Part shown: positions 1 through 13,681 of the stretch, piece after piece
Position numbering within the stretch: the first letter of the stretch is position 1
Layout of the letters: each line of letters begins with the position of its first letter
DNA from: Bacteroidota bacterium
GTDB lineage: Bacteria > Bacteroidota > Ignavibacteria > Kapaibacteriales > NICIL-2
DNA: 64,000 nt
Direction: 5' to 3'
NCBI GenBank assembly: GCA_019695345.1
Contig: JAIBAE010000014.1
Span: 1 to 64,000, forward strand
Notes under the pieces: generated by a model
Database searches by the model: none
Told to the model about the DNA's origin: nothing
Seen by the model: only the letters and a program-made list of their open reading frames with translations
Made by a program: the position numbers and the translations under genes

Positions 1-443
1 TAAGGAAGCTTGTTATATGAACCGGTTATCTTCATTTTAAAATCAGAGCCACTGTTCATTCCTGCTTTTGTTAAGACCTCCTTTACAACTTCCTCTACTG
101 TTAAATCTTGAAAAACTTTACTATCTCTGCGATGCTTTAACAAAGTAAATTTGGGAACGATAGTCAACATCAACTGAATCCTTATTTGCGAATCAGTGTT
201 CATTCTGTATTTACTTACAATACCTGTGTATTCCTGCATCAATCCTTCTTGTGTAATAGTACCCTGGCTTATTTTACACGTTACTTTACTTCCAACAAGA
301 TTTGCTAACGATATACTATGATCCAATACATCAATCGTGAGAGTATATTCATACGGTTTAGAGATACCTTCACTACCGGTGAAACTTGTAAACTCTATAG
401 AATTAGTATCTAAAGAAGATAGTATTTGGGTTAAAACAGGCAT
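1..443 (-). CDS. vgrG: VgrG (TssI) T6SS spike protein, N-terminal part only
   Basis: Reading the minus strand from the ATG at 443 gives 147 residues with no stop before the window edge. The product begins MPVLTQILSSLDTNSI and contains FTGSEGISKPYEYTL, EYTGIVSKYR and RRDSKVFQDLTVEEVVKEVL. These match the gp27-like N-terminal domain of VgrG: the FxGxEGLSxPYEF segment, the FxGIVT segment and the RRDSxIFQ(D)xSV segment. VgrG trimers cap the Hcp tube and carry effectors. The position as the last gene after clpV fits a T6SS cluster. The C-terminal gp5-like needle and any effector or PAAR extension lie outside the window, so the cargo cannot be judged. Confidence 0.88.
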   Translation of the reverse strand, partial: MPVLTQILSSLDTNSIEFTSFTGSEGISKPYEYTLTIDVLDHSISLANLVGSKVTCKISQGTITQEGLMQEYTGIVSKYRMNTDSQIRIQLMLTIVPKFTLLKHRRDSKVFQDLTVEEVVKEVLTKAGMNSGSDFKMKITGSYNKLP

Positions 444-659: not shown

Positions 660-3296
660 CTAAAAATTATATTCAAAATCTCCAGCTTCGTTAACCGTAA
701 TAGTAGCCGAACCAATTGTTTCTTTTTTGGCAATTTTATCTAAAATCCGTAAGGATAATTCAGGCAATATGGTTTGCGTTAAAATATTATCAATGTTACG
801 AGCACCAGAGTCAGGGTCGGTACAACGATTTGCAATTGCTGTAATCAATTCATCGGTTACATGCAACGATGCATTGTAACGTTCTTTGAATTGACGTTGT
901 GCCTTACCAATTTTCAATCGGGCAATTTCAGCCAATTGCTCCACGCCTAAAGGATAATATGGAACAACAACCATTCTACCTAACAAAGCAGGTTTGAAAA
1001 ATGCTTGTAACTCAGGCCGGATTGCATTGATAAGTGTTTCTACTTCCGGGTCTTCTTCGCTTGCATAACACAGGTTCATTAATGTATCAGTTCCAAGATT
1101 TGAAGTAAGGATTAACACTGTATTTTTAAAGTTCACCTCAATACCCTCACCATCTTCTAACAATCCTTTATCAAACACCTGATAAAACAATTCAAGAACG
1201 TCGATATGTGCTTTTTCTACTTCATCTAAAAGAACAACAGAATACGGATTACGCCGAACAGCTTCGGTTAACACACCGCCTTTGCCGTAACCAACATATC
1301 CCGGCGGCGAGCCTTTCAGTAAAGACACGGTGTGTGCTTCCTGATACTCACTCATAGCAATAGAAGTTATGCTATGCTCACCACCAAAGAAAGCATCAGC
1401 CAATGCTAAAGCAGTTTCAGTCTTTCCTACTCCGCTGGGGCCAACTAACAGAAACACAGCGGTCGGTTTATTGGGGTCACTTAACCCTGCAATAGAAGTA
1501 CGCATGCGTTTACAGATTTCTTCAATAGCTTGTGGCTGACCTTTAACACGGGCACTCATTGTTTTTTCTAGTGTATGAATTGCATCAACATTATCGCTCA
1601 TCATTTTACCGGTAGGAATACCTGTCCAATTTGAAATTACCGATGCAACTGTGTACCCATCTACAAACGGCAGCACTAATGGTGAATCTTGTTGAAGCTG
1701 TTTCAACTCTTCACGCATAGCTAGAAGTGAATCTAATGATGATTGATAAGAGTCATCTTGGTTTTCCTCAGCAGCTTCAACTACTTTTTGTTGTTCATTT
1801 ATTTTCTCAACAAGTACTTGTTCTTTTTGCCAACGTTCTTCGAGTTGATTAGCTTCTGCAACGTTTTGTTCAATCAACCTTTGATTCAACTCAATTTTCT
1901 CGGTGTGAATTGGAGTTGTTACCTGTTCACGTTTTAATGCAACCAATTCTTTTTCCAAAAACTCTTTATCAGATCGTAGTTTTTCTAAAGCTGCAGGTAT
2001 TGATGACTGAGTAATTGAAACTCTGGCACAAGCAGTATCTAAAACCGAGAGCGCTTTATCTGGCAACTTACGTTCAGGTAAATATCTATGAGTTAATTTA
2101 ACTGCCTGTTGCAATGCTTCTTCAAGGATACGTACTTTATGGTGGTGTTCAAACTTCTCTATCATACCACGCAACATATTTGTAGCATTTTCAATAGATG
2201 GCTCTTCTACTTTTACCACCTGAAAACGTCTGGTCAAGGCCGGGTCTTTTTCAAAATATTGTTTGTATTCCGACCACGTTGTAGCGGCAATAGTTCTGAG
2301 TTCCCCGCGAGCTAATGCAGGTTTTAATAAATTGGCAGCATCATTTTGCCCTGCCGCACCACCGGCACCTATCAATGTATGCGCTTCATCTATAAACAGA
2401 ATAATTGGTTGGGGCGATGATTTAACCTCTGTAATAACCTGTTTCAATCTATTTTCAAATTCACCTTTCATACCGGCACCTGCCTGTAGTAACCCCATAT
2501 CTAGCGATAGCAAACGTACATCCTTTAACATTGGAGGAACTTCATCACGAATAATTTTTTGAGCTAATCCTTCTACAACGGCTGTTTTACCTACTCCAGG
2601 TTCGCCGGTTAAAATAGGATTGTTCTGTCGGCGACGAGTGAGTATATCAATGGCTTGACGAATTTCTGCATCACGACCAACTATTGGGTCTAATGCACCT
2701 GATTTTGCTTGTGCGGTTAAGTCTGTAGTGTAAGCATCAATTGCTTTTGTTGATCGTTGGGGATGATGAGGTTGATTACCTTGTTGTCCGGTAGATTCTT
2801 GAGTTGAAGGTGCATCAGGTCTGTCTTCATATGAAGCATCCTGAATATCTTGTAATGCACCTTTCAAAACATCCTTAGTAAGAAATGCCATAGATGCACT
2901 CATTTCAATCAGAATTTTCCTAAGTGCATCATTTTGATACAGTGCCATTATGATATTACCGGAGCGAATTTTATCCTGATTAAGCGATAGAGTAACTTTA
3001 CGTGATTCGTTTAATAAATCTACTAATTGGTTTGAAATGCTTGGAGTTTTTGTATTCCCGGATTTCATTTTGGACAGCGAATACAAAATATCTTTTTTAA
3101 CATCAGCAGCTGGGATTTTAAAGTCACGAAGAATAACATCTAAATCTGTATTCTGCATTTCTAACAATGCCAGAATGTAGTGCTCAATATCTACAGCATA
3201 ATGTGTTTGTTTTAAACACATGGAAGCAGAACTTTCCAATGCTTTTCTGCATGTAGCATTTAACTGTTCTACTAACAAACGAATATTAGAATCCAT
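660..3296 (-). CDS. clpV: ClpV (TssH) T6SS AAA+ ATPase
   Basis: 878 residues, the usual size for ClpV/TssH. The order is an N-terminal Clp-N-like domain (about 1-150), AAA1 with Walker A GEPGVGKT near residue 232 and Walker [10 protein letters not shown], a ClpB-type middle coiled coil (about 400-530), AAA2 with Walker A GPSGVGKT near 620 and Walker [12 protein letters not shown], then a D2-small domain. ClpV is a cytoplasmic hexamer that disassembles contracted TssB/TssC sheaths. The ATG is preceded by AGGGGAATAT, a good SD. It lies 33 bases downstream of the methyltransferase gene. General ClpB is the alternative, but the location at the end of a T6SS operon and the N-domain favour TssH. 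Confidence 0.95.
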
Positions 3297-3329
3297 ATAT
3301 TCCCCTATGATAAATTATAACGAATTTAT

Positions 3330-4853
3330 TTAGTTACTTAGTAAACCTGATTTTTTGCACGCCTTAATTGATTTCAATAAGAACTCTTCTACATCCTCAT
3401 CTTTTTGCCAATCTAATTCTCTACTGCTTATCAATGAAGAAATTGCTTCAACATTTTCACGAAAATGCGCAGTCCCATCACACAGCTTTAGAAATTCACG
3501 CTCAACATTCCCTTCAACATGATACATTACATTATTTTGTGTAGGAATATTTAAACGCAATTCTAATAATTGTTTTGCATACTCCCACAACTTTGGTTTT
3601 TCAGTGTCAATTGATATTTCTGCACGCTCTGCATAAACCTCTATCAAATCTGCATAATACATTTTTAGTAAAACACTTTGTACCGTAGTTAAGTCAGTTG
3701 GTGATTCTTCAAGTCCTAATGTTTTATTTGCCATTTCAACTATTTCTTTTGTATTAAACCTTTTAGGATATTGAGCAGAAACAGTTACTAACGCAGCTTT
3801 TACCAATGGGCTATCTGTTCCCATGCCTTTGCCGGATTCATCTTTGAATTGAACAACTGAATTATCATAGATCAACGTTGGAGTTTCAGTTGTTAGATTT
3901 ATGCTAATAAATAAGGAGTCTAAAAAGCAGGAGTCAATAACACGTTTCAAATCAGTATGGTCATGCACCAGCATTGTTTGTCTGAACCTTCTATATCGAA
4001 GATAATCCATGTATTGTTCTTTTTGTAATAAATCTCCTTTGTGCAGGTTTTTGAACACCTGCGTAATTTCTTCATTAGGCATCTCATCATTCATTTCAAC
4101 AAAATCTGCTTCACCTAAATATGTTAGACTGTGTTTACTTGCATGGTTAATAAAGTCAGTAAATGAAATTGGTGTATAAATTTCGCCTAAGTCGTCGTGA
4201 ATGAATGCAGCATCCGGATAGCTTGCAATACGTTTTAATTCTTCTTGAAGTATATATTTATATGCACTCTGCATTCCTGAATTGGCTTTTGCCAAAAAAT
4301 ATATCATGGCACGTGCTTCTCTGACTTTATCCTTTGTTGTGGAAAACTGTTGAGTATGGAATCTCATTATTTCACGTGTCATTAATCGAATATGTCCGCC
4401 CGGCATAGTATTGTAACTAACAACACAGATTCCATTTTCCGAGAGATGCTCTTTACACTTCAACAAAATGGCTTCTTTTATACTATCGTGAACCCAAGCA
4501 TACAAGCCATGTACAATGATATAATCAAATTTGTAATCACTATACGTAAAGTCTTGTATATCAGCACATATAAATTCTATATTATCTATACTTAGATGAC
4601 TTTTACATTCTACTGCCTTTGTAATATTTGTTGATGCATAATCCAAACCAACAACTTTACTTTGCGGATGCCTCCATGCGTGAGGTAAAATATGCATTCC
4701 ATCTCCACAACCAATTTCAAGTACAGTTGCAGTTTCAATTGGAGTTGGTTTTACTCCTAAAATCTTACCCATTACATACAATCTATCAACAGTAACAGAT
4801 TGATGTATACCCGTTGGGTAAAATACATCATCGTACGGAGTATGTGTATCCAT
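3330..4853 (-). CDS. Class I SAM-dependent methyltransferase with regulatory domain, T6SS-embedded
   Basis: 507 residues. The SAM-binding motif I is VLEIGCGDG (about 45-53), followed by VVGLDYA, an FICADIQDF acidic segment and the post-motif SYNTMPGGHIR. The YNTxPG segment and the long helical C-terminal half resemble methyltransferases carrying the 'methyltransferase regulatory domain' (Pfam MethyTransf_Reg). The start lies 6 bases after the tssG stop, and its SD (AGG) overlaps the end of tssG, so the two genes look translationally coupled. It is therefore an integral gene of the T6SS operon rather than a bystander. The substrate is unknown. Modification of a T6SS component or effector is an inference from position only. 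It is not a standard T6SS core component. Confidence 0.85.
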   Translation of the reverse strand: MDTHTPYDDVFYPTGIHQSVTVDRLYVMGKILGVKPTPIETATVLEIGCGDGMHILPHAWRHPQSKVVGLDYASTNITKAVECKSHLSIDNIEFICADIQDFTYSDYKFDYIIVHGLYAWVHDSIKEAILLKCKEHLSENGICVVSYNTMPGGHIRLMTREIMRFHTQQFSTTKDKVREARAMIYFLAKANSGMQSAYKYILQEELKRIASYPDAAFIHDDLGEIYTPISFTDFINHASKHSLTYLGEADFVEMNDEMPNEEITQVFKNLHKGDLLQKEQYMDYLRYRRFRQTMLVHDHTDLKRVIDSCFLDSLFISINLTTETPTLIYDNSVVQFKDESGKGMGTDSPLVKAALVTVSAQYPKRFNTKEIVEMANKTLGLEESPTDLTTVQSVLLKMYYADLIEVYAERAEISIDTEKPKLWEYAKQLLELRLNIPTQNNVMYHVEGNVEREFLKLCDGTAHFRENVEAISSLISSRELDWQKDEDVEEFLLKSIKACKKSGLLSN

Positions 4854-4859
4854 TATAAC

Positions 4860-5852
4860 CTATAAACTAAAATGAAATTCCGAAGAATACTTATCCAAAG
4901 TATTCAGCTCCCCTATCCATGAAAAATGCCCCAACTGCACTCCTCGGGAAGTCATGAAGGGTTGGGGTATCTCCGAGTGTTGTAGTTGCATATTAACAAC
5001 AATATTCATCGTATCGTTGAATAAAAATCTAATCAAATCTGTAAATGCCCCATACTCTCTGCCACCCGGACGTATTGCTGCATACCGTTCGTACTGTAAT
5101 TCACTAATGTATATCTTACACGATGCAATGGGGTTAAATGCTCTGCTACCACAAATTGCATTAACACCAAGTTCAGTATTAAGCCCTTTTTCACCAATTG
5201 TAGTTAGCTCACTTTTATCAATCGTTACCCACTCACCTCTAAAATCATCAATCCGAACTTTTGCATTACAAAACTCAGCTATCATACATTCGTATACACT
5301 TTTACTTGCTTGTTCACCACTTAACATACCGGTAAATGGTATCAACTCTTCATCGTGTAAACGCATTTTGTTTCGCACTGTTGAATGTCCTAATCCAACA
5401 AGCGAATATAAAACTTTGTTTGCAGGCGAACGAGAGGGTTCGTCGTTAGTATATGCCGGACGGTATTTTCTGCGTACTCTTGAATGTATCGAAACTAATC
5501 TGTGATTAAATATATCTAAAAAGTCTCGCAGTATGGGTTCGCCTCTTTTTTCTTGCTCAAGAACTAAGTCGGTAACATATAAGGGTAAAGAGCCATGTGC
5601 GCCGGCTAATCCTAAATGTGTTACTTCCATCACATGACTATTCGACTCATCTAACTTTAAATCTTTAATTACCGATACTGGAAATTTATAATCGATGCTG
5701 GATCTAAATGCTACAAGTTCACTATCTAACATAGCTGTCTCGCCCGGACTTAAAGTGCCAGGTTTCATTTTTTCTAAAATCCTCAGTGCCTGATGTAAAT
5801 CAAAGTCTTCAGGATTATCGAGAAATTGTTGCTGAACAGTTTTCTTTTTCAT
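4860..5852 (-). CDS. tssG: TssG, T6SS baseplate subunit
   Basis: 330 residues, the normal size for TssG (VasB/ImpH family). Typical features are the N-terminal FDLHQALRILEKM segment, THLGLAGAHGSLPLYVTDLV (family pattern GLxGxxGpLPxxyt), and FLDIFNHRLVSIHSR (family pattern FxDxFnHRlls). TssG forms the baseplate wedge with TssE, TssF and TssK. It follows tssF, but an inserted repeat element at 5865-6026 separates them. The next gene, the methyltransferase, starts 6 bases after its stop. Confidence 0.93.
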   Translation of the reverse strand: MKKKTVQQQFLDNPEDFDLHQALRILEKMKPGTLSPGETAMLDSELVAFRSSIDYKFPVSVIKDLKLDESNSHVMEVTHLGLAGAHGSLPLYVTDLVLEQEKRGEPILRDFLDIFNHRLVSIHSRVRRKYRPAYTNDEPSRSPANKVLYSLVGLGHSTVRNKMRLHDEELIPFTGMLSGEQASKSVYECMIAEFCNAKVRIDDFRGEWVTIDKSELTTIGEKGLNTELGVNAICGSRAFNPIASCKIYISELQYERYAAIRPGGREYGAFTDLIRFLFNDTMNIVVNMQLQHSEIPQPFMTSRGVQLGHFSWIGELNTLDKYSSEFHFSL

Positions 5853-5864
5853 TATAGTACTATG

Positions 5865-6026
5865 TTTTGCTGTCGCCGGACGGCACCAAATTCGTATACA
5901 TTAAACTACCTCATTTTGCCGATGATACTGTCAGAATTAAATCTATAATGTACAAAGTTGGTATTTTTCCCGCACAGTAACCTTGTTTTGTGAAAAAGGT
6001 TAGGTGCGGTCTGCGGTAGCATAAAA
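5865..6026. repeat. MITE-like element, family 1, between tssF and tssG
   Basis: 162 bp with clear imperfect terminal inverted repeats. The left end reads TTTTGCTGTCGCCGGACGGC followed by ACC. The complement of the right end reads TTTTATGCTACCGCAGACCG followed by CACC. An internal CCCGCACAG...GGTT segment recurs in other copies. The right end lies 12 bases beyond the tssF stop, and the element fills nearly all of the tssF-tssG gap in an otherwise tightly packed operon. It has no ORF of its own that looks real. Confidence 0.75.
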
Positions 6027-6038
6027 TTATAGCTATCA

Positions 6039-7853
6039 TCAAACCACTTGAATATCAGGCTTCCAAGATTTCCACACCTCGGTTTTCTTAATACCATTTA
6101 CTTGAACTTGTGTAAACGAATTAACGCGTTCGTGCAATTGATAAAACTCATGTAAAATTCTACCTAATAATAATGCACTACTACCGGCAAAGTTTTCTTC
6201 GTTAAATGTTATGTTAATCTCTTTTCCACGTACATATCCAAATGCATCTAGGTTTCCTACTCTTTTAACTATTGCACGAATGTTCATTGCGGTAATAGCA
6301 TCTATCTGACGTTCAATATATGGTTCGTCATTTATATTATACAACCTAAGCATTTCCTTCAGAGCTGATAAAGCTGTTTGCGGATTACTTAGAGATATAT
6401 AATTCATAGACAGATGTGAAATTAACCGCCATCTCAATGATCCAGATAGTGGCGGATCTAACTGTTTTGTGGGTTGATGTAAACAAAATATTTTTGATAC
6501 AGGTAACCCCTTAACTTCAGTTTGAAGTACCGAACGTTCAGGTAAGCTTTGTGCCAAGTGTCTGTTTGTACATAACACGTGCCCATACACTGTTCCACCA
6601 GTACTACGTGATGGGTTAAACTCTTTATCAACAAATGAAACATACATTTCTGTACCGGGCTTATCTTTTCTATTAGTAGGTACTCGGCGAGCATACCAAT
6701 ATGCCTTATCGGATGCAGCCACACGCGACCCATGATGCAACGAAAAGAACGGTCGTAAAACGTGAGTTTCCGCCTTGGTATCCATAGAGCCGGTAATACT
6801 TGTTATTGAATGTATTTCGGTTAATAAATCTCTACGTAAGTCTGCTGTTAATTTGTATTGCATTGATTTATGGTCAACAAATAACGGCTCTGAAACTTTA
6901 GGAAATAAATTAACTATAGGAGTACAATACAATAGAAAATTATCACTTGTTACCAACCTATGTTCCTGTATCATATTCTTGAGAACAAAAAGTAGCTGTA
7001 ACTTATCATTCTTTATAGTACGCCTATCAAGGTTCTGTACATCAATAAACAAGAATTTTTCAGGAAATGCAAAATACTCTTGTAAGAGTCGGTATTGTGG
7101 ATGAGAAGTAGGGCGTGAAGGCAATATATTTTCATCATCTTCAAAGCCAACTTCTCTCAGACTTTCTTTTCCAATCCATACTACTGTATCGTTTTCAGGA
7201 TTATGCAAACCAATATCTAACAATTGTGTTGTTAGTAGTTCATACAATTCATAAGAGACTGATTTATTCCCACCTAAGTAAAACCTGAGTTCCGAACAGT
7301 CAATTTGTGGAAAAGGTACTTTTGAAGATTGTAATGATACGTTAATTACTGCTTCTGCATCATCATACCTTTTAACTTGATGAAACATTGCAGGGGAGCA
7401 GACATCAACATCCGAAACTTCGAAGGGGTAGAGGGTAACAGGATATGTTGTTCTCATATTTATACTATATCCTTCACCTAACTGTGCCAGCAATTGAGAG
7501 TCGCGTTCAACACGAAGGCCGGATGTAAAGTTTGCTTTACTATCGAGAACAAATCTTGCTACAGAAAACGCAGGAATAGGTTCTAAAAAGTGCGGATACA
7601 AGTTATCCAATAGAGCGAATGAAATTTCCGGGAACTCGCTATCAATATTGTATTGGATTCTGGCAGTTAGAAAAGCAAATGCCTCTATTAAACGTTCAAC
7701 ATGTGGATCACCTGATTGTGATGAAGATAGCTCTAAACGTGAAGCAATTTTAGGGTACTTTTTTGCAAATGCAGCGCCAGCCAAACGGAAGTAATCCAGT
7801 TCAGTTTCGTAATACCGTAGCAAATCTTCGCGTTTACTCTCCTTCATATACAT
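6039..7853 (-). CDS. tssF: TssF, T6SS baseplate subunit
   Basis: 604 residues, typical for TssF (VasA/ImpG). The N-terminus has LLRYYETELDYFRLAGAAFA (family pattern yYerEL.yLrelg.eFA), followed by DPHVERLIEAFAFLTARI and FPEISFALLDNLYPHFLEPI, the most conserved blocks of the family. TssF is the main wedge protein of the baseplate. The start overlaps the end of tssE by 20 bases, which indicates coupling. A second ATG at 7847 is an equally possible start, because ATG-TAT-ATG occurs here. The stop lies next to a family 1 repeat. Confidence 0.95.
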   Translation of the reverse strand: MYMKESKREDLLRYYETELDYFRLAGAAFAKKYPKIASRLELSSSQSGDPHVERLIEAFAFLTARIQYNIDSEFPEISFALLDNLYPHFLEPIPAFSVARFVLDSKANFTSGLRVERDSQLLAQLGEGYSINMRTTYPVTLYPFEVSDVDVCSPAMFHQVKRYDDAEAVINVSLQSSKVPFPQIDCSELRFYLGGNKSVSYELYELLTTQLLDIGLHNPENDTVVWIGKESLREVGFEDDENILPSRPTSHPQYRLLQEYFAFPEKFLFIDVQNLDRRTIKNDKLQLLFVLKNMIQEHRLVTSDNFLLYCTPIVNLFPKVSEPLFVDHKSMQYKLTADLRRDLLTEIHSITSITGSMDTKAETHVLRPFFSLHHGSRVAASDKAYWYARRVPTNRKDKPGTEMYVSFVDKEFNPSRSTGGTVYGHVLCTNRHLAQSLPERSVLQTEVKGLPVSKIFCLHQPTKQLDPPLSGSLRWRLISHLSMNYISLSNPQTALSALKEMLRLYNINDEPYIERQIDAITAMNIRAIVKRVGNLDAFGYVRGKEINITFNEENFAGSSALLLGRILHEFYQLHERVNSFTQVQVNGIKKTEVWKSWKPDIQVV

Positions 7854-8316
7854 TCACCATTCCATATTTACTTTGTACCACTAGGTAAAACTTAACATCT
7901 TCAGTTAATGGTTCTACATGTAGCATTGCAGTAAGTTGTATTCGAATTGACTGATCGGGGTCATCACTTTTTACCGGAATTACTTCTACTCGTACGTTTC
8001 TCAGTCGTGGTTCGAAAAATTCAATTCGTTCTCTCATTACATTAGTTAGCTTACGAACTTGATTAAAATCACCGGTAGACAGCGTAGTAGTATCTGGTAA
8101 GCCATAATCAATAACCGTAGGTGGTGTTCCGGGTACCTGAGCAGGATGCAATCGTGTGTTCAGTAAGTATTCTAAGTTTTGTGCAACAGAATATTTCACA
8201 TCTTCTAAATTGTACAAACCTAATGTATCATCAACAAGCACATCTGTGAGTTTACTATACGATAATCTATCGAATAAAGGGGCTCGTACTTTATGGAATA
8301 TATTATCTTTTTGCAT
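7834..8316 (-). CDS. tssE: TssE, gp25-like T6SS baseplate protein
   Basis: 160 residues with the gp25/lysozyme-like fold pattern: APLFDRLS near the N-terminus, SVAQNLEYLLNTR (family pattern sv.rdLe.LLNtR), then IDYGLPD and a C-terminal region including RNVRVEVIP. TssE nucleates sheath assembly on the baseplate, as T4 gp25 does. It is the first gene after the terminator at 8347-8382, only about 30 bases away. Transcription must therefore come from read-through of that terminator or from a promoter overlapping it. I see no convincing promoter in that short gap. Confidence 0.92.
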   Translation of the reverse strand: MQKDNIFHKVRAPLFDRLSYSKLTDVLVDDTLGLYNLEDVKYSVAQNLEYLLNTRLHPAQVPGTPPTVIDYGLPDTTTLSTGDFNQVRKLTNVMRERIEFFEPRLRNVRVEVIPVKSDDPDQSIRIQLTAMLHVEPLTEDVKFYLVVQSKYGMVNVYEGE

Positions 8317-8400: not shown

Positions 8401-8895
8401 TTAACCAGCTAAATTTTGCACTCTATCATATGCAATAACTTGCTTGTTTGCAGAACCTTTACCTGACAATTTTTCAGAATCGGTATATTTTAATGAAATT
8501 TTACCATAGTTGAGCATAACACTTTCGGTTGGTACTCCAGATGAAGCACCAATAAGAAAGTCAGAAACAACACAACTTTCTAAAAGAATATTAAGATATT
8601 CGATTCTCCCTGTATTATGTGCTCTATAACATTTGACAAGTACTTTTTCGAAATGTGTTCCAATCCAGCAATGCTTCATCAGTGGTACACTTGCAGAATC
8701 GGTTGACTTAACAAATGAAAAGTCGCTCATATGAACTTTACCTGTTGTGCCAGAACCTGCATAACTTCTTGCATCAGTTGTTGGCATATCACTACCAAAG
8801 CTAAAACTCATAATTTCAATTGCACCTATGTTTTCGGAATCTTGAGAATCACCAGCAACATCAGGTCCATGAAAATATAAATATACATCTGTCAT
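8401..8895 (-). CDS. hcp: Hcp-family T6SS tube protein (second copy)
   Basis: 164 residues of the Hcp (TssD) family. It starts MTDVYLYFHGPDVAGDSQD, has IEIMSFSFGSDMP, then HMSDFSFVKSTDSASVPLMK (family pattern dftftk.vDkaSp.L) and ends VMLNYGKISLKY. Hcp hexamers stack into the tube expelled by sheath contraction. It is paralogous to the adjacent upstream Hcp and shares the GPDV.GDSQD start, the GTHF.K block and the NYGKI..KY block. The two copies differ over much of the rest, so they are not recent identical duplicates. They may form mixed tubes, or one may carry a specific effector. It is the last gene before a strong terminator. Confidence 0.93.
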   Translation of the reverse strand: MTDVYLYFHGPDVAGDSQDSENIGAIEIMSFSFGSDMPTTDARSYAGSGTTGKVHMSDFSFVKSTDSASVPLMKHCWIGTHFEKVLVKCYRAHNTGRIEYLNILLESCVVSDFLIGASSGVPTESVMLNYGKISLKYTDSEKLSGKGSANKQVIAYDRVQNLAG

Positions 8896-8914: not shown

Positions 8915-9415
8915 TTAAGAAGCTTTGTTTGTTATCCGGTTATAACCGGCTGTTACAGTATTGGAAGATGGCTTCCCAGTATCTTTTTCAGTTGGTGTAT
9001 ATTTAACAAATATTTTACCATAGTTAATTGAGTATGATTCACTTGGTAGACCTAAGCCACCCATACCCGATGTTGAGCACATATTTATTACAGAATCTTC
9101 CAACAAAATATCAATGTAACAAGCCCTTCCATTTTCAAAAGCTCTGTACATCTTAAAATTAATTTTTTGGAAGTGAGTACCTTGCCAAGCATGCTTGGTA
9201 AGGGGTAAAGACGATGTGTCCATATTTTTTGTAAAGATGAAATCTCCCATATTTACTTTACCAGAAGTTGCCGAACCCGAGCCACTTCTTGCACCCGTAG
9301 TTGGCATATTAAACGATGTTTGTAGTGTATCAATTTCAATCCATGATTGATTCAATTGATCTTGAGAGTCACCAGTTACATCCGGACCGTAAAACATTGC
9401 ATAAATATCAGTCAT
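8915..9415 (-). CDS. hcp: Hcp-family T6SS tube protein (first copy)
   Basis: 166 residues. It starts MTDIYAMFYGPDVTGDSQD and shows the family blocks IEIDTLQTSFNMPTTGARSG, NMGDFIFTKNMDTSSLPLTK, KMYRAFENGRACYIDILLED and SINYGKIFVKYTPTEKDTG. It follows tssC by 37 bases and precedes the second hcp by 19 bases. The tssB-tssC-hcp-hcp order gives high co-expression of sheath and tube, which are needed in hundreds of copies. The Gly/Ser-rich segment around residues 110-125 (SGMGGLGLPS) is a likely exposed loop. Confidence 0.93.
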   Translation of the reverse strand: MTDIYAMFYGPDVTGDSQDQLNQSWIEIDTLQTSFNMPTTGARSGSGSATSGKVNMGDFIFTKNMDTSSLPLTKHAWQGTHFQKINFKMYRAFENGRACYIDILLEDSVINMCSTSGMGGLGLPSESYSINYGKIFVKYTPTEKDTGKPSSNTVTAGYNRITNKAS

Positions 9416-9452: not shown

Positions 9453-10928
9453 TTATGCTGCTGATTTTGGAAGTTTAGCTACTAAACGCAATGAAGTAGT
9501 TAAACCTTCTAATTGGAAATGTGGGCGTAAGTAAGCAACAGCTTGATACTCACCTGGCTTGCCTGCTATATCTGTAACATCTACTCGAGCTTCAAAAAGT
9601 GGATAGCGTGCCTTAGTCTCCTGGCCTGCATCCTCCATATTATTAACATAATTTCCTATCCAATTATTTAAAAATGTTTCAACATTTCCTTTAGATTGGA
9701 AGGAACCTATTTTATCGCGCATTATTGCTTTTAGATAATGTGCAAATCTGGAGGCAACTAAAATAAATGGCAATTGACTTGATAATTTTGCATTTGCAGT
9801 AGCATCAGGTGATTCATATTTTTTAGGCTTTTGAACTGTTTGCCCACCAAAGAAGGCCGCAAAATCACTATTTTTAGAATAGCAGAGTGACATAAATCCT
9901 AAATCACTTAACTCTTTTTCACGACGGTCACCAATTGCAATCTCAGTTGGACATTTAACAGCAATGTCACCATCATCGGATGGGAATGTGTGTACTGGTA
10001 GTCCTTCAACCAAACCTCCACCTTCAACACCGCGAATAGCAGCCGTCCAGCCATATTCTGCAAAAGCTTTCGTTATACACGTTCCTAATGCATAGGCAGC
10101 GTTACCCCAACAATATTTATCATGATCTTTACCAGAAACACTTTCAACATAGTTAAATCCATCAACTGGAATTGTATCTGGACCGTACGGCAATCTCATT
10201 AAAACTCTTGGTAATGCCATAGCAATATATCTTGAGTCATCACTTTCACGGAATGAGCGCCACTTAATCAGTTCATTTGATTCAAACTGTTTTGATAAAT
10301 CTCTTGGATCTGATAATTGTTGAAATGATTCCATATCAAACAACTCAGGAGATGGCGAAGTAACAAATGGAGCATGCGCTGCAGCTGCTACTGATGCTAC
10401 TTTTTCTATCAGCGCCATATCTTGTGGATGTCTGCCAAACTGATAGTCTCCAATAAGCATTGAGAAAGGATTTCCTCCTAATGTACCGAACTCCTCCTCA
10501 TATATTTTTTTGAATAGATTGCTTTGATCGAACTCAGCAGCCCTGTCTAAGTCATTAAACAGTTCTTTTTTTGACATTGGAATAACTTTGATTTTTAGTC
10601 CTGTACCAGTTTCTGAATTCATCACCAAATAATTTAATCCACGCCACGCACTTTCAAGTTTCTGAACATCTGCATTGTGCATTACCGCATCAAGTTGCAA
10701 ACTCACTAACTGATCTATTTCGGCGATTCGGCGATTAACCATGGTTATTAAATCTTGATCTACCGTCATACTACCGTCAACAATTTGGTTAACAAATGCA
10801 CCAATAATGTCTTTAGCAGCATCACGTTGATACTCGTTACGTGCCATCTTACCATTATCTATAATGGCATCAAGTAATGATCCATCGGAGAATGAAGCTT
10901 CATTTGATTGTTGTTGCTGTTGTTCCAT
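9453..10928 (-). CDS. tssC: TssC, large T6SS sheath subunit
   Basis: 491 residues, the expected length. Conserved blocks include LESAWRGLNYLV, GGNPFSMLIGDY, LPRVLMRLPYG, WGNAAYALG, GYTxxIRGxEgGG-like WTAAIRGVEGGGLVEGLPVH, and the C-terminal YLRPHFQLEGLTTSLRLVAKLP. With TssB it forms the contractile sheath. The N-terminus carries a short Gln run (MEQQQQQ) before the helical segment that in other systems is recognised by ClpV. The ATG shares one base with the tssB stop (TAATG), so translation is coupled. Confidence 0.97.
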   Translation of the reverse strand: MEQQQQQSNEASFSDGSLLDAIIDNGKMARNEYQRDAAKDIIGAFVNQIVDGSMTVDQDLITMVNRRIAEIDQLVSLQLDAVMHNADVQKLESAWRGLNYLVMNSETGTGLKIKVIPMSKKELFNDLDRAAEFDQSNLFKKIYEEEFGTLGGNPFSMLIGDYQFGRHPQDMALIEKVASVAAAAHAPFVTSPSPELFDMESFQQLSDPRDLSKQFESNELIKWRSFRESDDSRYIAMALPRVLMRLPYGPDTIPVDGFNYVESVSGKDHDKYCWGNAAYALGTCITKAFAEYGWTAAIRGVEGGGLVEGLPVHTFPSDDGDIAVKCPTEIAIGDRREKELSDLGFMSLCYSKNSDFAAFFGGQTVQKPKKYESPDATANAKLSSQLPFILVASRFAHYLKAIMRDKIGSFQSKGNVETFLNNWIGNYVNNMEDAGQETKARYPLFEARVDVTDIAGKPGEYQAVAYLRPHFQLEGLTTSLRLVAKLPKSAA

Positions 10929-11434
10929 TATTCACCATCACCTTTCTTTGTCTCTTCTGCTAACTTTTGCAGTTGTTCAGTATTTGATAAAATTCCTTCC
11001 AATTGTTCGTACAAGGCATTATTACCATCGAGTTTGGCAACCATTTCCACTAATTTTTGACGCAGGTCTAAAAGTTGTTTAACAGGTTCAACTTTATTAG
11101 CGATTACTTCCGGTCGAAAGTCTTCCATACTTTTGAATTCTAAATCTACATTGAACGCAGTACCGTTATCTTGGAGTTTATTTTCGACATTAGTAACTAC
11201 ACGTGGTTTAATACTATTCATTACTTTGTCGAAATTATCGCGGTCAATTTCAGTGAACTTTCTCTTTTTCATATCAGGTAAAGGTTCTTTTGGGTTACCC
11301 GCTAAATCACTCATTACACCTACTACAAAAGGCAGCTCCTTTTTTTGAATAGCACCACTTGTTTCTACATCATAGGTGATTTGAACTCTTGGTGGACGAA
11401 CACGCGTGAGTTTCTTCTGTGTATTATCTGCCAT
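10928..11434 (-). CDS. tssB: TssB, small T6SS sheath subunit
   Basis: 168 residues from the ATG at 11434. GGAG lies 6 bases upstream of this ATG. A TTG 12 bases further up is in frame but lies on top of that SD, so ATG is preferred. The protein has RPPRVQITYDVETSGA, ELPFVVGVMSDLAGN, RKFTEIDRDNFDKVMNSIKP and DLEFKSMEDFRPE, all hallmark TssB (VipA/ImpB) blocks. It pairs with TssC in the sheath. The gene sits one base from tssC and 53 bases after the unrecognised T6SS-locus gene. Confidence 0.96.
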   Translation of the reverse strand: MADNTQKKLTRVRPPRVQITYDVETSGAIQKKELPFVVGVMSDLAGNPKEPLPDMKKRKFTEIDRDNFDKVMNSIKPRVVTNVENKLQDNGTAFNVDLEFKSMEDFRPEVIANKVEPVKQLLDLRQKLVEMVAKLDGNNALYEQLEGILSNTEQLQKLAEETKKGDGE

Positions 11435-11487: not shown

Positions 11488-12147
11488 CTATACTTCAACA
11501 TCAGAGATTTCAGTAATTGTTAATCCTGTTGCAGATGGTAAGTACACTTCCTTGTAATCTGTTGACCCTTTATGACCTGAACCAATGATCGATTTACACA
11601 AAGCTATTGCCCAATTTGCATCTTCTTCAGAAACTCTAAGTAAACCAGTGCCATCAATTGCTCCTTGTGTTAAATCTCGCCCAAATTGTGTATGATGCAT
11701 ATCGGCATTATACAAAGGTCTGTCTTCGGCACACAGCCATTCTACAACTCCATCAAAAAGATTTTTCGGAGGTTTTCTTTGCCATGCAGTAAGCGACCTC
11801 ATTATACCTTTTTTTTGCTTTGCTGTATTAATATCGCTGGTAACTTGCATATATAGAGGAACAAAAGTTTTAAATGCATCAGATGCATAAAACTCTTCTG
11901 TTAAATGATATGGATTTGTACCATCGAATTTACCACTTATGCCTTTACCACGTGCTGGTAACAAAAACATAAGTGTTAACTTGGCTGCCTTTGTTTTTGT
12001 TGGCGATGCTCTATAAATTTTTACACATGAATAGAATGCAGTAGCTGACGCAGCTGGTCTATCGCCGCGTATAGTGTTAGAACAAAATATAGATCTTATT
12101 TTCCCCGGAGAATCAAAATTACTTGCAAGTCTTTCTTCGTTAGGCAT
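11488..12147 (-). CDS. Unrecognised protein encoded between tssA and tssB
   Basis: 219 residues from the ATG at 12147 (AGAGG upstream with 5-base spacing; an in-frame GTG 6 bases earlier overlaps that SD). I do not recognise the family. The protein has no signal peptide or membrane segment. Visible features are a basic N-terminal third (IYRASPTKTKAAKLTLMFLLPARGKG), an aromatic region with EEFYASDAFKTFVPLYMQ, a KQKKGIMRSLTAWQRKPPKNL basic stretch, and an acidic C-terminus. It is the first gene downstream of a Bacteroidota-like promoter and directly precedes tssB-tssC-hcp-hcp. A role as a sheath/tube accessory or regulator of this T6SS is inferred from position only. Confidence 0.75.
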   Translation of the reverse strand: MPNEERLASNFDSPGKIRSIFCSNTIRGDRPAASATAFYSCVKIYRASPTKTKAAKLTLMFLLPARGKGISGKFDGTNPYHLTEEFYASDAFKTFVPLYMQVTSDINTAKQKKGIMRSLTAWQRKPPKNLFDGVVEWLCAEDRPLYNADMHHTQFGRDLTQGAIDGTGLLRVSEEDANWAIALCKSIIGSGHKGSTDYKEVYLPSATGLTITEISDVEV

Positions 12148-12208
12148 ACACACCTCTACTTTTGAATAAAATAAAATGAATCTTATTAGTATGATGAAGT
12201 TGGATAAA

Positions 12209-12234
12209 TGAGAATAATTTCCCTAATTTTCTCA
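12209..12234. other. Imperfect inverted repeat in the leader of the tssB operon
   Basis: TGAGAA and TTCTCA, separated by 14 A/T-rich bases, form an imperfect palindrome between the putative promoter at 12271-12301 and the first gene. It could be an operator or a weak leader hairpin. The rest of the 345-base gap (12148-12492) is AT-rich and holds the promoter, a small GTTAG/CTAAC inverted repeat at 12372-12388, and a fragment of the family 1 repeat at 12464-12487. Confidence 0.3.
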
Positions 12235-12270
12235 TTTTTGGAATATTATCTGAAGCATGTTTCCCTTAGC

Positions 12271-12301
12271 CAAACATAACGAAGTTAACTGCGTATTGCA
12301 A
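12271..12301 (-). promoter_or_regulatory. Putative Bacteroidota-type promoter of the tssB-tssC-hcp operon
   Basis: On the minus strand TTG (complement of 12299-12301) is followed after 20 bases by TATGTTTG (complement of 12271-12278). This matches the Bacteroidota sigma-A pattern of a -33 TTG, 19-21 bases and a -7 TAnnTTTG. It would start transcription about 115 bases upstream of the unrecognised gene. The same TATGTTTG octamer occurs about 32 bases upstream of tssK (20528-20535), but without a matching TTG. Confidence 0.5.
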
Positions 12302-12463
12302 GATATTTTTTGTGGGTTGCATAAAACAAATCAATTTATCTGAATTTGAAGTATTGACACTGATTTTCTTTGTTAGAAATTTCCTAACTGTAAGTTTTTT
12401 GTGTGGTTAGTTACTTATATATGATTCTAAACGGCATGCTCCATTTAATTTAATGTGAATGCT

Positions 12464-12487
12464 GGATGCCGTCCTGCGAAAGCAAAA
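12464..12487. repeat. Family 1 repeat end fragment beside the tssA stop
   Basis: The complement reads TTTTGCTTTCGCAGGACGGC followed by ATCC, matching the terminal repeat of the 5865-6026 and 51301-51440 elements. It lies 6 bases beyond the tssA stop codon. The opposite end is not recognisable, so this looks like a remnant or a solo end. Next to it, CGGCAT/ATGCCG at about 12431-12470 can form a small hairpin. Confidence 0.5.
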
Positions 12488-12492
12488 GGACA

Positions 12493-13620
12493 TTACCAAC
12501 CAGATGAAGCAGAAGTGTTTGATGTTTGTTGTTCTTCAGTGACAATATCCAAAAGCTTGAACAACTGCTTAGTGTCAGATGCGTTATTATATAGTTCTTC
12601 AAGTAGTTCTTGTGCTGACATTCGTCCCCACTTTGCTGCACGTTTTAAGAGGTATGGAACCGGACTATGTGGTTCAATTCGCATTAAAAAATCGGATATT
12701 CTGTGAATTGCATTATAGGCTTCTTCTCTGGATGTAATAGCATTAATATCAGTTCCAGCTTGACGTGTAAGTATAGTAGTTCCATCTTGAGTGACAGATT
12801 CTACTGCGTTATCTGGTACATTTCCTACCCCACGTTCTGATAATATACGTGCAACCCATTTCTGGATTAAACCTAAAGTTTCGTACAGTTGATTAAATGA
12901 AAAATCAGCATCGCTTTGTTCATCAAGATCATTGCGTAATGGCTCAACTTTGGATTGTAAAACGTTTTCTAAATTCTGAGCAGATTCTACAGATAACTCT
13001 ATTAACTCTTTAAATTCTGTATAAAATTCGGTTGGGGTAGATTGTACAGCCCCATTAAACAAATACGCAGTAGGTCGTCCATTTTGATTAGCTTCTTTTT
13101 TCTCCGTTTCAGACATTTTATCAATGTAAGAACACTCTAAATAATTACCCCATGTATACTGTGAGTACTCCGTAGAAGAGGGCTGAGTAATTGATAGAAT
13201 ATTTGCTTTTTCTTCGAACTTGGCAAAGAACTTATTGATGACATTCATTCGACGATAGAGGTCATTTGGTTCCTCTAAAGCCGGGAATAGCGTTTCCCAG
13301 AAAGTATCAATGACTTGTGTCAATAACTGAATTCCGTCATTAAGAGCTGCAATGCCTTCTTTGCGGATACCTGCTTCAATCATCCAGACAACCAATTGTA
13401 TGTCCTTGGTTTTTGTGCTAAGCAGAGTATCACTTAGTGACAGTACCTTTCCCCAGTCAGCAACTTTCAATTCTTCCCAATCTTGCCTACTAAGATTAGG
13501 ATCATCTTCTTTCATAGCATCGATTATCTGAAGATATTGAGACGTACCACTTTGGTCAATACCGCTTGGCTGTGAATCACTGATTGGCTCTAACAACGAT
13601 TGTATATCAAATACGGACAT
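12493..13620 (-). CDS. tssA: TssA, T6SS baseplate/sheath-assembly organiser
   Basis: 375 residues from the ATG at 13620, which has GAGG upstream. A longer in-frame ATG at 13656 would add 12 residues (MYKKKSLFIEVS) but has no SD. The N-terminus MSVFDIQSLLEPISDSQPSG and the following DWGKVLSLSDTLLSTKTKDI and FWETLFP blocks identify the ImpA N-terminal domain of TssA. The C-terminal SDFLMRIEPHSPVPYLLKRA block is also family-typical. TssA binds the membrane complex and baseplate and coordinates tube/sheath polymerisation. It follows tssM by 61 bases and appears to end the tssK-L-M-A transcription unit. Confidence 0.9.
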   Translation of the reverse strand: MSVFDIQSLLEPISDSQPSGIDQSGTSQYLQIIDAMKEDDPNLSRQDWEELKVADWGKVLSLSDTLLSTKTKDIQLVVWMIEAGIRKEGIAALNDGIQLLTQVIDTFWETLFPALEEPNDLYRRMNVINKFFAKFEEKANILSITQPSSTEYSQYTWGNYLECSYIDKMSETEKKEANQNGRPTAYLFNGAVQSTPTEFYTEFKELIELSVESAQNLENVLQSKVEPLRNDLDEQSDADFSFNQLYETLGLIQKWVARILSERGVGNVPDNAVESVTQDGTTILTRQAGTDINAITSREEAYNAIHRISDFLMRIEPHSPVPYLLKRAAKWGRMSAQELLEELYNNASDTKQLFKLLDIVTEEQQTSNTSASSGW

Positions 13621-13681
13621 AGATACCTCGATAAAGAGAGATTTTTTTTTGTACAAAATACAACAAGTGTTACAAATAACA

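What the first reader, a model, noticed from the sequence alone, without database searches (positions are those of the whole stretch)
11488..12147. Unknown protein leading the tssB-tssC-hcp-hcp operon
This 219-residue protein matches no family I know, yet it is the first gene after a promoter and co-transcribed with the sheath and tube genes. It is soluble, with basic and aromatic patches. It is a candidate new T6SS component, for example a sheath chaperone, Hcp adaptor or regulator.
Basis: partly seen in the sequence, partly recalled or inferred. Interest (0 to 1): 0.65.

Follow-up and report, generated by a model that had tools for sequence, protein, structure and literature searches.

The report
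Orphan gene in type VI locus
A real gene with no detectable relatives in any collection searched sits at the head of a type VI secretion operon in one Kapabacteria-type bacterium; because the nearest relatives' machines lack it, it is probably lineage-private cargo or an accessory, not a missing part of the machine.

Summary
The gene is real: minus strand 12147-11488, ATG, ribosome-binding site, 219 aa, native codon usage. It lies between tssA and tssB, running the same way, after a 345-nt gap with a Bacteroidota-like promoter match, and 54 nt before tssB. It matches no family in Pfam, NCBIfam, PHROGs, PADLOC or PDB. I found no homologue in close scans of 84,980 species and viral contigs, in tblastn of phages and plasmids, or in six-frame searches of order, class and phylum samples. 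Its own genome has no paralogue. The 'new T6SS component' reading holds only in weak form. Same-family relatives with 77-80% identical TssB and 83-85% identical TssC lack the gene, and in more distant loci tssA is usually followed directly by tssB. In a sister genus the post-tssA position holds a different ~580-aa protein that diverges much faster (28% identity against 65% for TssA and 71% for TssM). I therefore read the tssA/tssB junction as a variable slot and this gene as lineage-private: most likely T6SS cargo (effector-like), less likely an accessory or regulator, or an unrelated passenger. No structure could be predicted (pLDDT 36). Function is not shown.

The parts
11488..12147 (-). The orphan gene (219 aa, pI about 8.6, no transmembrane segment or obvious signal peptide)
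12148..12492 (-). 345-nt intergenic region after tssA; holds a promoter-like TTG-N20-TATGTTTG whose TATGTTTG box starts 131 nt before ATG, and SD AGAGG just before ATG
   Evidence: promoter match post hoc
12420..12492 (-). Hairpin just after the tssA stop (possible 3' end of tssK-L-M-A transcript, no proper T tract)
   Evidence: -16.1 kcal/mol, z -1.46: weak
12493..13626 (-). tssA (ImpA_N)
10928..11434 (-). tssB (VipA)
9453..10928 (-). tssC (VipB)
8915..9415 (-). hcp, first copy
8401..8895 (-). hcp, second copy
660..8316 (-). tssE, tssF, tssG, methyltransferase, tssH/clpV (rest of the operon)
1..443 (-). 5' part of vgrG, continuing off the contig end; rest lies at the start of contig C143 with a MORN-like and a PAAR-like ORF (these two named by eye)

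Best explanation
A species- or genus-private gene occupying a variable slot between tssA and tssB of a T6SS cluster. It is probably transcribed together with the sheath and tube genes (inferred). It most likely encodes T6SS-linked cargo: a small soluble protein made when the machine is made and exported by it (inferred, through Hcp or VgrG/PAAR). It is not a part the machine needs. Shown: a real coding sequence, no detectable relatives, absence from the closest T6SS loci, a different fast-diverging protein in the same slot of a sister genus. Inferred: co-expression, secretion, toxicity.
For: Real CDS. Absent from same-family loci with TssB 77-80% and TssC 83-85% identical. The same slot in G005 and G006 holds a ~560-596-aa protein with a long hydrophobic stretch in G005, 28% identical between the two genomes while TssA is 65% and TssM 71%: a variable, fast-evolving slot. 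The cluster is otherwise complete apart from a TssJ that I did not identify, with vgrG and a PAAR-like ORF following. Variable cargo regions between conserved core blocks are documented in Ralstonia T6SS loci (PMC11481896).
Against: No immunity-like gene next to it, which antibacterial effectors usually have. No known effector domain or marker detected. Orphan status alone does not imply cargo. No structure. The slot pattern rests on one sister genus (two genomes). The native, well-adapted codon usage gives no sign of recent arrival.
Confidence: 0.38

Rival explanations
1. A lineage-specific accessory or regulator of the T6SS (like AsaA of Acinetobacter, first gene of its cluster and genus-restricted) that acts on TssB/TssC/Hcp assembly or on expression.
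For: Leads tssB-tssC-hcp-hcp on the same strand, 54 nt from tssB; best-adapted codon usage in the cluster after one hcp. AsaA shows that genus-restricted leading genes can be needed for assembly (PMC6602968).
Against: Closest relatives run a very similar TssB/TssC without it. AsaA has a signal peptide and binds periplasmic TssM; none is evident here.
Confidence: 0.27
2. An orphan gene with no T6SS role that landed in, or arose in, the tssA-tssB gap.
For: No relatives detected. No link to T6SS other than position.
Against: Kept intact and with adapted codons inside the T6SS transcription unit; same-strand placement without a terminator before tssB.
Confidence: 0.27
3. A very diverged or shortened form of the ~580-aa slot protein of the sister genus.
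For: Same position after tssA; that family evolves fast (28% between two genomes of one genus).
Against: Length 219 against about 580; pairwise BLAST E 0.2-0.8 in non-matching regions for the two relatives, chance level.
Confidence: 0.05
4. Not a real gene (spurious ORF).
For: No homologues.
Against: Codon usage, position-3 bias, SD.
Confidence: 0.03

Closest known systems
AsaA of Acinetobacter (PMC6602968)
   Different: AsaA has a 24-residue signal peptide and binds the periplasmic part of TssM; the present protein has no evident signal peptide. Sequences not compared.
Cargo genes in variable regions of T6SS main loci (for example Ralstonia aux clusters, PMC11481896)
   Same: Variable genes placed between conserved core T6SS genes; content differs between relatives.
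   Different: Those are vgrG-linked toxin/immunity clusters; here a single gene without vgrG or immunity gene beside it.
P0002 slot protein of G005/G006 (L030:4238-6028)
   Same: Same position directly after tssA, same direction, fast evolving.
   Different: About 580 aa with a long hydrophobic stretch in the G005 copy; no significant sequence similarity.

Membership tests
Known T6SS structural component (TssA-TssM, Hcp, VgrG) | Sequence match to the family profile | tested here: not met
   Pfam and NCBIfam none; hhalign against 14 cluster-protein profiles at decoy level
Known T6SS structural component (TssA-TssM, Hcp, VgrG) | Conserved in related T6SS clusters | tested here: not met
   Absent from the other sampled T6SS loci
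T6SS effector/cargo | Known toxin domain or effector marker | tested here: not met
   No Pfam, NCBIfam or PADLOC match; markers such as MIX only looked for through Pfam and by eye
T6SS effector/cargo | Adjacent immunity gene (usual for antibacterial effectors, not universal) | tested here: not met
   Single gene between tssA and tssB
T6SS effector/cargo | Position in a variable slot of a T6SS locus | tested here: met
   suggestive only, not by itself defining
T6SS effector/cargo | T6SS-dependent export | not testable with these tools
   needs a secretome experiment
AsaA-like accessory | N-terminal signal peptide, periplasmic | tested here: not met
   No hydrophobic N-terminus in the sequence (no dedicated signal-peptide predictor run)
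AsaA-like accessory | Required for T6SS assembly | not testable with these tools
   needs a deletion

The most novel reading that the evidence does not exclude
A new protein family, with a fold not yet recognised, that is exported or used by the T6SS of one Kapabacteria-type lineage as a new class of effector or a lineage-specific assembly factor.
Probability: 0.3. Interest if true: 0.5.

Novelty: new member of a known kind. Interest (0 to 1): 0.27.

Why it matters
If it is cargo, it adds an effector of unknown type and marks the tssA-tssB junction as a place to look for effectors in this little-studied phylum branch. If it is an accessory, it shows that lineages add private parts to a conserved machine. 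As it stands it is an orphan gene at a suggestive position.

Tried and rejected
Single-sequence AlphaFold2, full length and trimmed: pLDDT 36 and 37, not used for fold search. Weak tblastn hits in relatives (best E 4.9e-4 over 391 genomes): of five read in full, those that aligned at all gave short or low-identity alignments inside long surface-type or protease-type proteins, judged chance; first read some of these on the wrong strand and one search corrected it. Weak hit L054 (E 0.002 when re-scored in a small set) is a 27-29% match over about 85 residues of a 939-aa frame and was picked for that match, so it is not evidence. Diverged duplicate of Hcp, TssB, TssE and others: hhalign at decoy level. 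Rfam in the gap: nothing credible. Literature on T6SS in Kapabacteria: no paper held.

Full report
Observation. The frame at 11488-12147 is on the minus strand and encodes 219 residues from ATG, with AGAGG five bases upstream. It is a real coding sequence by codon usage: it scores above 82 of 83 equal-length segments of neighbouring genes; of the five other frames four are negative and one antisense frame is positive but lower (0.065 against 0.092). Position-specific base bias is strong. It lies between tssA and tssB; neighbours were confirmed by Pfam. The vgrG gene runs off the contig end and continues on contig C143, followed by a MORN-like and a PAAR-like ORF. tssK, tssL and tssM were named from their sequences and from BLAST among loci, not from a profile.

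Transcription. A 345-nt gap precedes the gene. The generic sigma-70 scan shows no excess. A match to the Bacteroidota consensus (TAnnTTTG, PMC9723704) lies 131 nt upstream, found in 2% of shuffles, but I looked for it after seeing it. A weak hairpin follows tssA. No terminator-like site was found before tssB.

Homology. Nothing in Pfam, NCBIfam, PHROGs, PADLOC or PDB (16). No close relative in one genome for each of 84,980 species or in viral contigs; none in plasmids or phages by tblastn. None credible in 61 relatives, 123 order genomes, 391 class genomes and 395 phylum genomes by six-frame search, nor in 16 genomes with a related TssB (60). No paralogue in its own genome. The scans need exact 8-residue stretches and see only close relatives, so distant homologues in unsampled species are not excluded. 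Named relatives of the TssB place the lineage near Chlorobiota/Candidatus Kapabacteria.

T6SS relatives. In the order, 8 of 123 genomes carry TssB. In the same family, G002, G004 and G005 have TssB 77-80% and TssC 83-85% identical to the window, and none has this gene. G012 and G056 run tssA to tssB with a gap and no comparable gene between, as do most more distant loci where tssA could be seen. So the gene is apparently dispensable for this kind of machine across the family. All comparisons are to other genera; no second genome of the window's own genus was available, so presence within the genus is unknown.

The slot. In G005 a different 596-aa protein follows tssA, and G006 has a relative of it in the same place. 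Between these two genomes it is 28% identical, while TssA is 65% and TssM 71%. Its stretch of hydrophobic residues recalls pore-forming effectors, but this is by eye only and Pfam gives nothing above its cut-offs. This suggests that the tssA/tssB junction holds variable genes in this family.

Function. Position in a variable slot next to sheath and tube genes favours cargo; the lack of an immunity gene and of any known domain counts against a classical antibacterial effector. An AsaA-like accessory (PMC6602968) is the main rival. Structure prediction failed, so no fold search was made. I put cargo first with low confidence.

Noticed in passing
L030:4238-6028 and L077:6079-7824: A fast-diverging ~560-596-aa protein directly after tssA in two sister-genus genomes, with a long hydrophobic stretch in the G005 copy and no Pfam family: a possible T6SS effector.
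   Followed up: partly
L030:6048-9604 (-), L032:1510-3162 (-), L077:7833-9440 (-): TPR proteins on the opposite strand between tssA and tssB (or before tssB) in the sister genus; the two L030 copies have a C-terminal LuxR-type helix-turn-helix by Pfam. Candidate T6SS regulators, absent from the window's slot.
   Followed up: partly
window 3330-4853: A methyltransferase with a MethyTransf_Reg domain (PF10119) inside the T6SS operon between tssG and clpV; the sampled same-family clusters G004 and G005 go from tssG directly to clpV.
   Followed up: no
window 1-443 and G000:C143:2-1789: vgrG is split by a contig break, the two contig ends sharing sequence; the part on C143 is followed by a MORN-like ORF and a PAAR-like ORF.
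   Followed up: partly
window 8401-8895 and 8915-9415: Two adjacent, clearly different hcp genes; the pair is also present in the same-family relatives G002, G004 and G005.
   Followed up: no
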